Below, piece by piece: positions 2,818 to 6,811 of a stretch of 6,811 nucleotides of DNA (position 1 is the stretch's first letter; every line of letters begins with the position of its first letter). This DNA is from Nostoc sp. CHAB 5834. Lineage in GTDB: Bacteria > Cyanobacteriota > Cyanobacteriia > Cyanobacteriales > Nostocaceae. Position numbers and translations under genes: made by a program. The DNA lies in assembly GCA_020829485.1 (NCBI GenBank), contig JAIVFU010000074.1:25906-32716 (forward strand), written 5' to 3'. Below the pieces are notes generated by a model. The model did not search any database. It was not told where the DNA came from and saw only the letters and a program-made list of their open reading frames with translations.

Positions 2818-5754
2818 ATGTCAGACCAACAGCTAGCAGCATCCTTGAATGGACATCTTCCCAACCCCAGCCACAACAGCCAGAATACCATTCGGATTCG
2901 GGGTGCTAGGCAGCATAATCTGAAAAATATTGACTTGGAATTGCCACGTGATCGCCTAATCGTATTCACTGGCGTTTCTGGTTCTGGTAAGTCTTCCCTA
3001 GCCTTTGACACCATTTTCGCTGAAGGGCAACGTCGCTATGTGGAATCCCTCAGCGCCTACGCACGGCAATTTCTCGGACAACTGGATAAGCCGGATGTAG
3101 AAGCCATTGAAGGCTTAAGTCCAGCCATTTCTATTGACCAAAAATCAACGTCTCATAACCCGCGTTCTACTGTGGGGACGGTGACAGAGATTTACGACTA
3201 TTTGCGGCTGTTGTTTGGTCGGGCTGGCGAACCCCATTGTCCGATATGCGATCGCTGTATTGCACCCCAGACAATCGATGAGATGTGCGATCGCATCATG
3301 GAATTACCAGATCGCACGCGTTTTCAAATTCTTGCACCTGTTGTCCGGGGGAAGAAGGGCACACACCGGAAGCTTTTGTCAAGTCTGGCATCTCAAGGTT
3401 TTGTCCGCGTGCGGATCAATGGCGAGATCCGCGAACTGTCAGATTCCATTGAATTGGATAAAAACTTTACCCACACCATCGAAGTGGTAATTGACCGTTT
3501 GGTGAAAAAGGCTGATATCCAAGAGCGTTTGGTTGATTCTCTGTCTACGTGTCTCAAGCAATCGGGTGGGATTGCCAGTATTGTCATTAGTCATGAGTCA
3601 TCTAAGGAAACCCCCCCTAGCCCCCCCTTGGCAAGGGGGGGTGCCGAAGGCGGGGGGTCTAGCTCCGAAGAAGAATTAGTATTTTCGGAAAATTTTGCTT
3701 GTCCAGAACATGGGGCGGTAATGGAGGAACTATCGCCGCGATTGTTCTCGTTTAACTCGCCTTATGGTGCTTGTCCGCACTGTCATGGAATCGGGACTTT
3801 AAGAAGATTTGCGCCTGATTTGATTGTACCTGACTGGGAAGCGCCAGTTTATGCTGCGATCGCGCCTTGGTCAGAAAAAGAGAATTCTTATTATTTGGAA
3901 TTACTCTATAGCGTTGGGCAGATTTATGGATTTGAGTTACAAACAAATTGGAGCAAGCTAACAGAAGAACAGCAACAAATTATTTTGTTTGGCGAGAAAG
4001 ATGAACGAACCGCAGAGGCGCAGAGGAAGCAGAGTTTTAAAGGTGCTATTCCAATTTTACAACGGCAGTATGAGGGTGGTTCGGAATTAATTAAGCAAAA
4101 ATTAGAGCAGTATTTAATCGATCAACCGTGTGAAGTTTGTCTGGGGAAACGGTTAAAACCGGAAGCCTTAGCAGTGAAGTTGGGACAATATGGAATTTTA
4201 GAATTGACTACCGTATCGATTCGGGATTGTCGGGAGAGAATTGAGCAATTTAAGTTGAGCGATCGCCAGTTACAAATTGCTGATTTAGTTCTGAGAGAAA
4301 TTAAAGCTAGATTGCAATTTTTGTTGGATGTCGGTTTAGATTACCTCACCCTCGATCGTCCCGCTATGACTCTTTCTGGTGGCGAAGCCCAACGAATTCG
4401 TCTAGCAACGCAAATTGGTTCTGGGTTAACAGGAGTTCTCTACGTCTTAGATGAACCGAGTATTGGTTTGCATCAACGAGATAATGGCAGGTTGCTCAAA
4501 ACCTTAACTAAATTGCGCGATTTGGGTAATACATTAATTGTCGTTGAACATGATGAAGAAACAATTCGCGCAGCTAACTACATAGTTGATATTGGCCCTG
4601 GTGCAGGAATTCACGGCGGAAATATTGTCGCCCAAGGTGATTTTCAGGCGTTATTAGCAGCAGAAGATTCTTTGACGGGTGCATATTTATCAGGAAGGCG
4701 AGTAATTACTACACCAGCAGAACGCCGAGAAGGAAATGGGCGCAGTTTGGGGATTAAAAATGCTCATCGCAACAATTTACAAAACATAGATGTAGACATT
4801 CCGTTAGGTAAACTCGTCTCTATTACTGGTGTATCTGGTTCTGGCAAATCTACTCTGATTAACGAATTACTATACCCATCTCTGCAACACCATTTAACTA
4901 AGAAAGTTCCCTTACCTAGACATTTGGATAAAATTCAGGGATTAAACGCGATTGATAAAGCGATCGTTATCGATCAATCTCCCATTGGACGCACACCACG
5001 TTCTAACCCTGCAACTTACACAGGAATTTTCGATGCCATTCGAGATGTATTTTCCCAAACAGTAGAAGCCAAAGCTAGGGGTTACAAACCTGGACAATTT
5101 TCCTTCAACGTTAAAGGTGGACGTTGCGAAGCTTGTAGCGGACAGGGTGTAAATGTTATTGAAATGAACTTTCTCCCGGATGTTTACGTGCAATGCGAAA
5201 TTTGTAAGGGTGCAAGATACAACCGCGAAACTTTGCAAGTGAAGTACAAAGATAAGTCAATTTCTGATGTACTGAGAATGACAGTTGAGGAAAGTCTAGA
5301 CTTTTTCCAGAATATCCCCAAAGCGATCGCGCGTTTGCAAACTTTATTTGATGTCGGGTTGGGTTATGTCCAACTAGGACAACCTGCGACTACTTTATCT
5401 GGTGGTGAAGCCCAACGGGTGAAATTGGCAACAGAATTATCTCGACGCGCCACAGGTAAGACACTTTATTTAATAGATGAACCGACAACAGGGTTATCTT
5501 TTTACGATGTCCACAAATTGTTGGATGTATTGCAGCGATTGGTGGATAAAGGCAATTCAATATTAGTAATTGAACACAATTTAGATGTAATTCGTTGTTC
5601 TGACTGGGTGATAGATTTGGGGCCAGAAGGTGGTGATAAAGGGGGAGAATTAATTGCTGTGGGAACACCGGAGGAAGTTGCAAAAAATCCCAGGTCTTAT
5701 ACTGGGCAATATTTAAAGCAGGTGTTGAAACAGTATCCGGCGGTGAAGAAGTAG
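2818..5754 (+). CDS. uvrA: UvrA, excinuclease ABC subunit A
   Basis: UvrA is the dimeric ATPase that, with UvrB, finds bulky DNA lesions in nucleotide excision repair and loads UvrB for UvrC incision. The 978 residues show both ABC modules. Module I has Walker A GVSGSGKS at 52-59, signature LSGGEAQR at 519-526 and Walker B with LDEP at 544-547. Module II has Walker A at 671-678, signature at 860-867 and Walker B with IDEP at 886-889. The zinc site of module II is C770/C773/C793/C796; the first metal-type site is C295, H298, C319, C322. The UvrB-binding region lies at about 130-250. An in-frame TAA 27 nt upstream leaves this ATG as the first start; no clear Shine-Dalgarno precedes it. It is somewhat longer than the 940 residues of E. 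coli UvrA. Part of the excess is low-complexity sequence at about 256-286 encoded by short interspersed repeats, with another repeat at 396-406. Confidence 0.98.
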   Translation: MSDQQLAASLNGHLPNPSHNSQNTIRIRGARQHNLKNIDLELPRDRLIVFTGVSGSGKSSLAFDTIFAEGQRRYVESLSAYARQFLGQLDKPDVEAIEGLSPAISIDQKSTSHNPRSTVGTVTEIYDYLRLLFGRAGEPHCPICDRCIAPQTIDEMCDRIMELPDRTRFQILAPVVRGKKGTHRKLLSSLASQGFVRVRINGEIRELSDSIELDKNFTHTIEVVIDRLVKKADIQERLVDSLSTCLKQSGGIASIVISHESSKETPPSPPLARGGAEGGGSSSEEELVFSENFACPEHGAVMEELSPRLFSFNSPYGACPHCHGIGTLRRFAPDLIVPDWEAPVYAAIAPWSEKENSYYLELLYSVGQIYGFELQTNWSKLTEEQQQIILFGEKDERTAEAQRKQSFKGAIPILQRQYEGGSELIKQKLEQYLIDQPCEVCLGKRLKPEALAVKLGQYGILELTTVSIRDCRERIEQFKLSDRQLQIADLVLREIKARLQFLLDVGLDYLTLDRPAMTLSGGEAQRIRLATQIGSGLTGVLYVLDEPSIGLHQRDNGRLLKTLTKLRDLGNTLIVVEHDEETIRAANYIVDIGPGAGIHGGNIVAQGDFQALLAAEDSLTGAYLSGRRVITTPAERREGNGRSLGIKNAHRNNLQNIDVDIPLGKLVSITGVSGSGKSTLINELLYPSLQHHLTKKVPLPRHLDKIQGLNAIDKAIVIDQSPIGRTPRSNPATYTGIFDAIRDVFSQTVEAKARGYKPGQFSFNVKGGRCEACSGQGVNVIEMNFLPDVYVQCEICKGARYNRETLQVKYKDKSISDVLRMTVEESLDFFQNIPKAIARLQTLFDVGLGYVQLGQPATTLSGGEAQRVKLATELSRRATGKTLYLIDEPTTGLSFYDVHKLLDVLQRLVDKGNSILVIEHNLDVIRCSDWVIDLGPEGGDKGGELIAVGTPEEVAKNPRSYTGQYLKQVLKQYPAVKK
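3583..3601 (+). repeat. Heptamer (GTCATTA-type) repeat inside uvrA
   Basis: GTCATTA, GTCATGA and GTCAT stand in tandem with a 7-bp period. This resembles the heptanucleotide STRR sequences of heterocystous cyanobacteria, usually intergenic. Here it encodes VISHES at about UvrA residues 256-261, in the variable loop just before the ELVFSENFAC segment, and is followed at once by a GC-rich palindrome. Confidence 0.65.
3610..3658. repeat. GC-rich palindromic interspersed element inside uvrA
   Basis: Bases 3621-3641 form a perfect palindrome with 10-bp arms around one central base (CCCCCCCTTG against CAAGGGGGGG). An outer arm pair, ACCCCCC at 3610-3616 and GGGGGGT at 3652-3658, encloses it. C-run/G-run elements of this look are, from memory, common between genes in filamentous cyanobacteria. 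Here the element is in frame and encodes PPSPPLARGGAEGGG (residues 266-280) without a stop. Confidence 0.8.
4011..4034 (+). repeat. 8-bp periodic repeat (CGCAGAGG) inside uvrA
   Basis: CGCAGAGG, CGCAGAGG and AAGCAGAG follow one another with an 8-bp period, preceded by AACGAAC. This resembles a CGCAGAGG-type repeat I know from intergenic cyanobacterial DNA. It encodes about residues 396-406 (ERTAEAQRKQS) between LFG and the conserved FKGAIPIL, where UvrA proteins vary. A diverged relative lies just after the uvrA stop at 5769-5792. Confidence 0.65.
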
Positions 5755-6025: not shown

Positions 6026-6430
6026 TCATCCTAAAATAAACAAACTTCTATCAACATGAAAAAACTTTCCCAAAGCCTCAGCTTGTTCTTTCGTCATCTC
6101 TAACTTGCCATTAATTATTTTACTAACAATCTCGCTCGAACCTAGAATTTCTACCAAATCAGCTTGTTGCAAACCCCTTGCTTCCATCAAATGCAAGAGT
6201 CTTGAATAAGGTGTTGAGGAATTAAGCTGATAGTGCTTATCTTCAAAATCCTCAATCAGTTTTACCAATAATTCCAACAAAGCATCTTCTTCAAGAGTCA
6301 GATGAGAACGAGAAAGCAGTTCTTCAACAGTTTCTAAAAATTTCTCGTTTTCTTCTTCTGTCTTGATAATCCGAGGTTGATGTTGAGACAGCAATTCGCT
6401 GTAAATATCTGAGTTAAAAGTAAGGGTCAT
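6026..6430 (-). CDS. higA: HigA-type antitoxin, HTH protein
   Basis: The 134-residue product has an N-terminal helical part (MTLTFNSDIYSELLSQ, then a Glu-rich segment to about 70) and a C-terminal helix-turn-helix of the Cro/C1-XRE type at about 76-130 (LLHLMEARGLQQADLVEILG, NGKLEMTKEQAEALGKFF). Such HigA proteins neutralise a HigB RNase toxin and repress their own operon. I chose the ATG at 6430 rather than the in-frame ATG at 6460: it gives the family-typical MTLTFN start and overlaps the end of higB by 17 nt (stop at 6414-6416), as expected for translational coupling. Its toxin partner is broken, so it is now an orphan antitoxin. The TGA stop overlaps a HIP1 site. Confidence 0.88.
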   Translation of the reverse strand: MTLTFNSDIYSELLSQHQPRIIKTEEENEKFLETVEELLSRSHLTLEEDALLELLVKLIEDFEDKHYQLNSSTPYSRLLHLMEARGLQQADLVEILGSSEIVSKIINGKLEMTKEQAEALGKFFHVDRSLFILG

Positions 6431-6713
6431 TTTTCCAGGAGTCTTTGTCATATTCGGCATGAGTTAAGACATATTTTATATAGATGACCTGTTTTTCATA
6501 GTTAATACTAGCAATTAAGCGGTATTTATAGCGGTTCCTGTTCTGGTGAAGTACACAAGGGCGCTTCGGGATGCCCACCACACAAAAACTTTACTGCTTT
6601 AATCTGTACCTCACTCGATAGGGAACTGCTATATTACCTTTAATGTTGAAAACTATAAACTTGCTTACTGCTTCGGCTTGAGGATAAATAAGTAAGTCGG
6701 CAGGAAAAATCAT
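6414..6713 (-). pseudogene. higB: higB toxin, disrupted by a MITE and 5'-truncated
   Basis: Two pieces of a HigB-type RNase toxin flank an insertion. The upstream piece (6713-6633) reads PQAEAVSKFIVFNIKGN and the downstream piece (to TAA at 6414-6416) reads KYRLIASINYEKQVIYI and VLTHAEYDKDSW. Joining them with one TA restores KGNKYRLIA exactly. In the present sequence translation runs into the element and stops at 6591-6593, losing the C-terminal 37 residues, which include the conserved RLI and THAEYDK motifs. The joined product from the only nearby ATG (6713) is about 64 residues, whereas HigB toxins are near 95-100. An in-frame TAA lies 30 nt before that ATG, and no expected N-terminal sequence is seen in any frame, so the 5' end is also missing. 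The toxin is almost certainly inactive. Confidence 0.88.
6529..6631. mobile_element. 103-bp MITE with TA target duplication, inside higB
   Basis: The ends are imperfect inverted repeats. TATAGCGGTTCC at 6527-6538 faces the complement of TATAGCAGTTCC at 6622-6633, one mismatch in 12; the match continues to 29 bp (6527-6555 and 6605-6633) with 22 identities. The flanking TA at 6527-6528 and 6632-6633 is the target duplication, as in IS630/Tc1-mariner-type elements. A small GGGC/GCCC hairpin lies in the centre. It has no room for a transposase, so it must have been moved in trans. Removing element plus one TA restores the interrupted reading frame. Confidence 0.88.
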
Positions 6714-6730
6714 AACTATGTAACGAAAAG

Positions 6731-6811
6731 TTAACCAGAACTGTTAGAGCTAAATTTAATACGTTGTGTACTGTAGTTTCCTTTTTCCCCTCTAGCTTGA
6801 ATACCACCAAT
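6731..6811 (-). CDS. Possible C-terminus of an unidentified protein (partial)
   Basis: From the right edge a minus-strand frame is open for 26 codons (IGGIQARGEKGNYSTQ, then RIKFSSNSSG) and ends in TAA at 6731-6733, 17 bp before the first ATG of the higB remnant. The composition is protein-like but I do not recognise a family, and 26 open codons can occur by chance. It could be the end of an upstream gene or simply untranslated DNA. Confidence 0.25.
   Translation of the reverse strand: MGGIQARGEKGNYSTQRIKFSSNSSG

What the first reader, a model, noticed from the sequence alone, without database searches (positions are those of the whole stretch)
6414..6713. MITE insertion splits higB and leaves an orphan HigA antitoxin
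The 103-bp element has inverted ends and a TA duplication. Removing it with one TA restores the HigB frame exactly (KGN followed by KYRLIA), so the insertion is recent enough that both flanks are undamaged. The 105-bp net insertion keeps the frame length but carries a stop at 6591-6593. It records how a toxin-antitoxin locus is disarmed by toxin loss while the antitoxin persists.
Basis: partly seen in the sequence, partly recalled or inferred. Interest (0 to 1): 0.72.

Follow-up and report, generated by a model that had tools for sequence, protein, structure and literature searches.

The report
Twice-broken toxin gene beside surviving antitoxin
In this cyanobacterium two different jumping elements have broken a bacterial toxin gene while the gene for its antidote next door is still whole, an ordinary kind of event that seems to recur at this spot in relatives.

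Summary
The MITE is real: a 103-bp element (6529-6631) flanked by TA interrupts a HigB (PF09907) gene upstream of an open higA frame. Relatives carry the uninterrupted site with one TA, and similar-sized elements with the same ends occur elsewhere. But "both flanks are undamaged" is wrong. HigB homology stops at 6690; 6691-6811 is the end of an IS630-family element inserted at another TA, so the toxin's start and first 42 codons are missing from the window. The toxin was hit twice, and any promoter upstream of higB is cut off from higA.

The order DUF2358-higB-higA-uvrA is shared in Nostoc. Found by its flanks in 29 of 53 genomes: both genes whole in 5, only the antitoxin whole in 9, both broken in 4, a toxin scrap alone in 1, neither in 10. 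Toxin whole with antitoxin broken: 0 of 29, though three such cases exist in a paralogous HigBA family. In four genomes the toxin differs far less at silent sites than both neighbour genes, hinting at recent toxin exchange. A clear new example of a known kind (orphan antitoxin).

The parts
6026..6460 (-). higA antitoxin frame, 144 aa, open and without stops; its start lies inside the toxin's last 47 bp
   Evidence: HigA of solved complexes, E 5e-5; about 90% amino-acid identity to the closest Nostoc loci
6414..6527 (-). C-terminal remnant of higB (about residues 63-99)
   Evidence: PF09907 46.3 bits; contiguous with relatives' toxin
6527..6528 (.). TA beside the MITE (target duplication, one side)
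   Evidence: single TA at this place in relatives
6529..6631 (.). 103-bp MITE-like element, no transposase
6632..6633 (.). TA beside the MITE (target duplication, other side)
6634..6690 (-). Middle remnant of higB (about residues 44-62)
   Evidence: window 6632-6690 is 59 of 59 identical to L003, L004 and L005; piece 6633-6713 gives PF09907 19.4 bits, below the cut-off
6689..6690 (.). TA at the border of the IS630-family element; the duplicate on its far side lies beyond the window
   Evidence: relatives have TA here in the uninterrupted gene
6691..6811 (.). End of an IS630-family element, running past the window's end
   Evidence: matches in 12 of 12 relatives' genomes; under annotated IS630 transposases in several plasmids; terminal repeat
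2818..5754 (+). uvrA, conserved neighbour of the locus

Best explanation
A chromosomal higBA toxin-antitoxin pair of a Nostoc-type cyanobacterium, of the same family as the solved HigBA complexes, has lost its toxin through two transposon hits: an IS630-family element at codon 43/44 and a 103-bp TA-inserting MITE after codon 62. The antitoxin frame, which starts inside the last 47 bp of the toxin gene, is untouched and is now an orphan. Shown: both insertions, natural uninterrupted sites in relatives, the open antitoxin frame, and near-identity of the surviving toxin pieces to relatives. Inferred: both lesions are recent; the toxin is inactive, because its start, first 42 codons and continuity are gone; losing the toxin is tolerated whereas losing the antitoxin beside a live toxin is not; the orphan is kept partly by selection and partly because it has had little time to decay. 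Other genomes have lost the toxin at the same orthologous locus by other lesions, and some the antitoxin as well.
For: Adjoining alignment and single TA in L003-L006 and L008; element family; IS630 end and its abrupt border at a TA; PF09907 in each piece and in the intact relative (106.7 bits); homology to solved HigB and HigA; 1 difference in 128 toxin-only bases against L004; window higA dN/dS 0.16-0.48 against five relatives; survey of 29 syntenic loci with 0 of 29 toxin-whole and antitoxin-broken.
Against: The far side of the IS630 element lies outside the window and no genome is held, so its second TA was not seen. Antitoxin function and expression were not tested; no sigma-70-like promoter match lies in 6380-6811 (0 found, 1.1 expected in shuffles). 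The toxin-first order is not universal: three paralogous loci (L210, L211, L212) have a full-length toxin frame beside an antitoxin with a nonsense codon.
Confidence: 0.88

Rival explanations
1. A single MITE hit into an otherwise whole higB.
For: The MITE and its empty site are real.
Against: HigB homology ends at 6690 and IS630-like sequence follows.
Confidence: 0.03
2. The IS630 junction at 6690 is an assembly error near the window's right end, so only the MITE is a true lesion.
For: The window ends 121 bases into a repeated element, where draft assemblies often break or mis-join.
Against: The border falls exactly on a TA followed by the element's terminal repeat, as expected of a true insertion; the TA-target rule is documented for ISY100, another IS630-family element (PMC2170065, passages).
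Confidence: 0.05
3. The MITE or IS sequence was kept because it supplies a promoter for higA (useful insertion rather than simple damage).
For: The insertions separate higA from any promoter upstream of higB, yet its frame is open.
Against: No sigma-70-like site was found in 6380-6811; the scan covers only one promoter type. The toxin pieces are nearly identical to relatives, so there has been little time for selection to show.
Confidence: 0.05
4. The 55-codon frame 6414-6581, which begins in the MITE and ends with HigB's last 37 residues, makes a useful peptide, such as a decoy for HigA.
For: Open frame with PF09907 45.3 bits.
Against: The same 3' end is kept in many other broken loci, which its overlap with the antitoxin frame already explains; no start signal was shown.
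Confidence: 0.03

Closest known systems
HigBA type II toxin-antitoxin pair with PF09907 toxin (solved examples 5ifg, 5ycl, 6kml)
   Same: Toxin gene first and antitoxin second; both proteins are homologous to solved HigB (E 2.7e-8, using the intact relative L004) and HigA (E 5e-5).
   Different: In the window the toxin gene is broken at two places and only the antitoxin frame is whole.
Orphan (solitary) antitoxins, as surveyed in Klebsiella and E. coli (PMC7192599, PMC10790755; passages read)
   Same: Antitoxin without a working toxin at the original locus; those papers name degraded pairs and anti-addiction as possible explanations.
   Different: Here the two lesions are identified at base level and the same locus is seen whole, half-lost and lost in relatives.
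Tc1/mariner-IS630 elements such as ISY100, and TA-inserting MITEs
   Same: Insertion at TA with TA duplication (PMC2170065, passages); inverted ends.
   Different: The MITE's ends differ from those of the IS630-family element beside it; I did not find the transposase that moves it.

Membership tests
HigB toxin, PF09907 | Match to the PF09907 profile | tested here: met
   C-terminal piece 46.3 bits (cut-off 27); N-terminal piece 19.4 bits, below the cut-off alone; intact relative 106.7 bits
HigB toxin, PF09907 | Uninterrupted gene with its own start | tested here: not met
   Start and first 42 codons absent, MITE after codon 62
HigB toxin, PF09907 | mRNA cleavage activity | not testable with these tools
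   Needs experiment
HigA antitoxin | Homology to solved HigA and position just after higB | tested here: met
   5ycl_A and 5ifg_B, E 5e-5; overlaps the toxin's 3' end. Pfam HTH_3 stays below its cut-off (17 against 23 bits)
HigA antitoxin | Neutralises HigB | not testable with these tools
   Needs experiment
TA-inserting MITE | Short, inverted ends, TA duplication, no transposase, further copies elsewhere | tested here: met
TA-inserting MITE | A full-length parent element with the same ends | tested here: inconclusive
   None found in the plasmid collection; genomes were not searched for a full-length parent
IS630-family element (6691-6811) | Similarity to IS630 elements, terminal repeat, TA target | tested here: met
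   paired end motifs 1.16-1.19 kb apart in 3 of 7 relative copies examined, while the other 4 showed one or no exact motif
IS630-family element (6691-6811) | Transposase and far end present in this copy | not testable with these tools
   Outside the window; no genome held
PD-Lambda-2 phage-defence system | Match to its toxin and antitoxin profiles | tested here: inconclusive
   PD-Lambda-2_A E 6.8e-9 (C-terminal toxin piece) and PD-Lambda-2_B E 4.6e-20, but the latter covers only positions 3-105 of 402
PD-Lambda-2 phage-defence system | Remaining component(s) of the system present | not tested
   Not filed as a member; that the system has further components is recalled, from no call

The most novel reading that the evidence does not exclude
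At this locus the antitoxin is the lasting resident and the toxin a passenger that comes and goes. Toxin genes pass between Nostoc species in short recombination tracts that end near the toxin gene's borders, land beside a resident antitoxin that makes them harmless, and are then broken by transposons and deletions. Basis: for the six pairs among G003, G004, G005 and G008 the toxin differs at 0-3 of about 47 silent sites, DUF2358 at 22.5-32.5 of about 86 and the antitoxin at 12.5-27.5 of about 82 (Fisher p 7e-6 to 5e-4, pairs not independent); in 45 control pairs from other HigBA loci the median toxin/antitoxin ratio of silent divergence is 0.89, lowest 0.35.
Probability: 0.25. Interest if true: 0.65.

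Novelty: new member of a known kind. Interest (0 to 1): 0.42.

Why it matters
Addiction logic says a toxin-antitoxin pair should lose its toxin first. One orthologous locus seen whole, with the toxin broken, with both broken and with both undetected lets that order be tested on a tree, and the toxin's low divergence offers a testable reason why orphan antitoxins persist. The window itself is one clear, recent case, and a warning that a tidy single-insertion story can hide a second lesion at a window's edge.

Tried and rejected
The window's own genome is not held. Rfam: 0 matches. Promoter and terminator scan of 6380-6811: nothing. Parent element of the MITE: none found in plasmids. Search with the whole MITE: 1 of 12 relatives' genomes and 5 of 53 genus genomes, all partial matches; an exact end pattern hit 1 of 53. 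That the MITE derives from the neighbouring IS630-family element was dropped because their ends differ.

A 594-column uvrA tree (42 rows; 12 of 39 inner branches starred, 19 open) is too weak to place the window or count events; toxin-whole against toxin-not-whole needs 7 changes on it, rows with neither gene left out. One row, L067, was labelled antitoxin-only there although its antitoxin matches in two pieces. Lesions were then grouped by shared upstream sequence: G010/G039, G012/G036, G015/G048/G049/G053/G038 and L029/L067 group together, while G030 and L073 share only DUF2358-side sequence with the third group. That leaves about ten or more different lesion types, a hand judgement. Pfam on 10 hand-picked ORFs from 8 broken loci gave one transposase (ISL3 in L034), so transposons are not shown to cause most of the other lesions.

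The first paralog control lost loci through orientation (14 of 30 kept) and was redone (29 of 30); there pairs under 70% antitoxin identity after tail alignment were dropped, which left 9 of the 21 syntenic pairs and 2 of the six core pairs, so the six come. One search did not list all its matches. Nine loci were fetched because one search showed a stop in the antitoxin: three are true toxin-whole/antitoxin-nonsense cases (L210, L211, L212), five have a whole antitoxin (L209, L213-L216; in L213-L216 the stop lies just before its start), and L217 has both genes broken. Other stop-bearing antitoxin matches were not opened.

Literature: searches (open PMC library only). Searches returned 0 papers. 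Passages read in PMC7192599, PMC2170065, PMC10790755 and PMC5987646; other papers seen only as listings and abstract starts.

Full report
What was checked. The finding describes a 103-bp MITE splitting higB in front of an orphan higA. The window carries uvrA at 2818-5754 and, facing it on the minus strand, the antitoxin frame 6026-6460 with toxin-like frames behind it. The inverted ends are present and the element 6529-6631 has TA on both sides. The two toxin pieces, searched apart, match PF09907 at 46.3 bits (6414-6527) and 19.4 bits (6633-6713, under the cut-off of 27).

Empty site. A scan of genome contigs with the antitoxin gave 80 loci, the closest in Nostoc at about 90% amino-acid identity. 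The unmodified minus strand 6811-6414 was aligned to them. In L003, L004, L005, L006 and L008 the segments 6632-6690 and 6414-6529 fall on adjoining stretches with one TA between them. The MITE is therefore a lineage-specific insertion. Elements of 106-108 bp with the same ends are in L102, L106 and L108 (all from genome G004), in L110 (G047), and in a Calothrix plasmid, L111, the last 75% identical over all 107 bp.

The second lesion. In the same alignments homology ends at 6690. An intact relative, L004, has a 99-residue HigB (PF09907 106.7 bits; similar to solved HigB 5ycl, 5ifg and 6kml) whose start lies 128 bp upstream of that point. In the window that part is replaced by 6691-6811. This stretch has matches in 12 of 12 relatives' genomes searched, seven of which hold a copy at 85-89% over 116-121 of its 121 bases, and its relatives lie under annotated IS630-family transposases in several plasmids. 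In 3 of 7 such copies examined, paired end motifs starting just inside a TA lie 1.16-1.19 kb apart; the other 4 showed one or no exact motif. So an IS630-family element sits at codon 43/44 and continues past the window's end. Which element came first cannot be told. Both look recent: the remaining toxin-only sequence differs from L004 at 1 of 128 bases.

The orphan. HigA is open over 144 codons and homologous to HigA of solved complexes (E 5e-5). Its first codons overlap the toxin's 3' end by 47 bp, which would explain why that end survives in many broken loci. dN/dS between the window's higA and five relatives is 0.16-0.48. Between orphans that share upstream sequence it is 0.21 (G010/G039) and 0.38 (G015/G053), within the 0.14-0.42 of six pairs in which both genomes have a whole toxin. 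Only surviving frames were compared and stop codons were skipped, so constraint may be overstated.

The locus across Nostoc. The order DUF2358-higB-higA-uvrA is shared by many of the close loci. To avoid choosing by the antitoxin, 53 genomes of the genus group were searched with toxin, antitoxin, uvrA C-terminus and DUF2358. I took the 29 genomes in which DUF2358 and uvrA lie within 6 kb on one contig, plus 7 with one flank or split contigs, and fetched all 36 as 37 stretches. The other 17 showed no readable syntenic locus and were left out. In the 29: both genes whole in 5 (G003, G004, G005, G006, G014); antitoxin whole with toxin broken or undetected in 9 (G007, G009, G010, G012, G015, G024, G026, G039, G053); both broken in 4 (G036, G048, G049, G054); a toxin 5' scrap without antitoxin in 1 (G046); neither detected at E 0.1 in 10. 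Toxin whole with antitoxin broken: 0. In several of the nine the antitoxin's first two to nine residues are not matched and the start codon was not verified. Of the 7 partial loci, G008 is whole; G001, G002, G030 and G042 keep an antitoxin without a whole toxin (G042 at a contig edge, G030 without the first 20 residues); G038 has a split antitoxin; G045 has a toxin scrap and no antitoxin detected. The lesions differ: deletions reaching from DUF2358, a nonsense codon, remnants after unrelated sequence, and others. 'Neither' may be full decay or never present; this was not resolved.

Results against. In another HigBA family three loci have a full-length toxin frame and a nonsense codon in the antitoxin (L210, L211, L212). 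One lacks ATG at the usual start, and the other two differ at positions that other copies share, so those toxins may be inactive, but this was not tested. Five other suspected cases proved to have whole antitoxins and one to have both genes broken. The toxin-first order is thus consistent at the syntenic locus, not universal. The uvrA tree is too poorly resolved to count events.

An unexpected pattern. For the six pairs among G003, G004, G005 and G008 the toxin differs at 0-3 of about 47 silent sites, DUF2358 at 22.5-32.5 of about 86 and the antitoxin at 12.5-27.5 of about 82 (Fisher p 7e-6 to 5e-4, not independent). Against G004, in G003, G005 and G008 the last flanking difference lies 9-15 bp before the toxin start and the next cluster begins directly after the toxin stop; for the pair G003/G005 the antitoxin-side edge is softer by my reading of that list. 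G014 shows it weakly (p 0.03 against G004), G003/G006 does not (p 0.37), and G007 not at all (p 1.0 and 0.38). That argues against general silent-site constraint, as does the control median of 0.89 in 45 pairs of other HigBA loci. For the window, toxin-only pieces differ from L003, L004, L005 and L008 at 4, 1, 2 and 3 of 128 bases and the antitoxin at 26, 36, 38 and 29 of 426; this points the same way, though the contrast with L003 is small. Recent exchange of the toxin fits best, but the sample is four genomes.

Verdict. A real, recent, doubly disrupted higB with an open orphan higA: a good example of a known kind. The decay series and the toxin's low divergence deserve a proper phylogenetic study. 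Orphan antitoxins, including remnants of degraded pairs, are already described (PMC7192599 and PMC10790755, passages). My searches (open PMC library only) listed no paper that by title or abstract start treats this locus; one Nostoc genome paper mentions a higBA module in a figure legend (PMC5987646, passage), and I did not determine which locus that is.

Noticed in passing
3605-3661: A palindromic GC-rich repeat sits in frame inside uvrA, in a stretch that varies in length among relatives; L014 has a similar stretch.
   Followed up: partly
865-1120: About six head-to-tail copies of a unit of roughly 46 bp (CGAGTTCCGAACACCAATGGCCGAGCAAAAAGGTCGAAGTTC-like), seen by eye.
   Followed up: no
650-700: G-rich run of GGGGGATGAGG-like repeats just after the WD40 frame, seen by eye.
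   Followed up: no
L004, L003, L005, L200: toxin gene and flanks: Silent divergence drops sharply in the toxin gene relative to DUF2358 and antitoxin.
   Followed up: partly
L210, L211, L212: Paralogous HigBA loci with a full-length toxin frame but a nonsense codon in the antitoxin.
   Followed up: partly
L049 4731-5038: Plectonema toxin interrupted near the same codon as the window's MITE: the two matches (residues 37-64 and 59-99) are about 100 bp apart. The inserted sequence was not identified.
   Followed up: no
L034 4551-4943: A Phd/YefM antitoxin-like frame runs into the HigB remnant of a Richelia locus, with an ISL3 transposase gene beside it.
   Followed up: no
L010 4540-4977: A PIN-domain frame lies just upstream of an orphan higA where the toxin would be.
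   Followed up: no
L067 3368-4612 and L172 688-1938: Frames of 415 and 417 codons without Pfam match between DUF2358 and higA on the opposite strand; whether they are related was not tested.
   Followed up: no
6026-6460 and 6414-6527: Antitoxin and C-terminal toxin piece match PADLOC's PD-Lambda-2_B and PD-Lambda-2_A profiles.
   Followed up: no
1118-1825 and 1889-2635: Two Uma2-family (PF05685, putative endonuclease) frames side by side on the minus strand.
   Followed up: no
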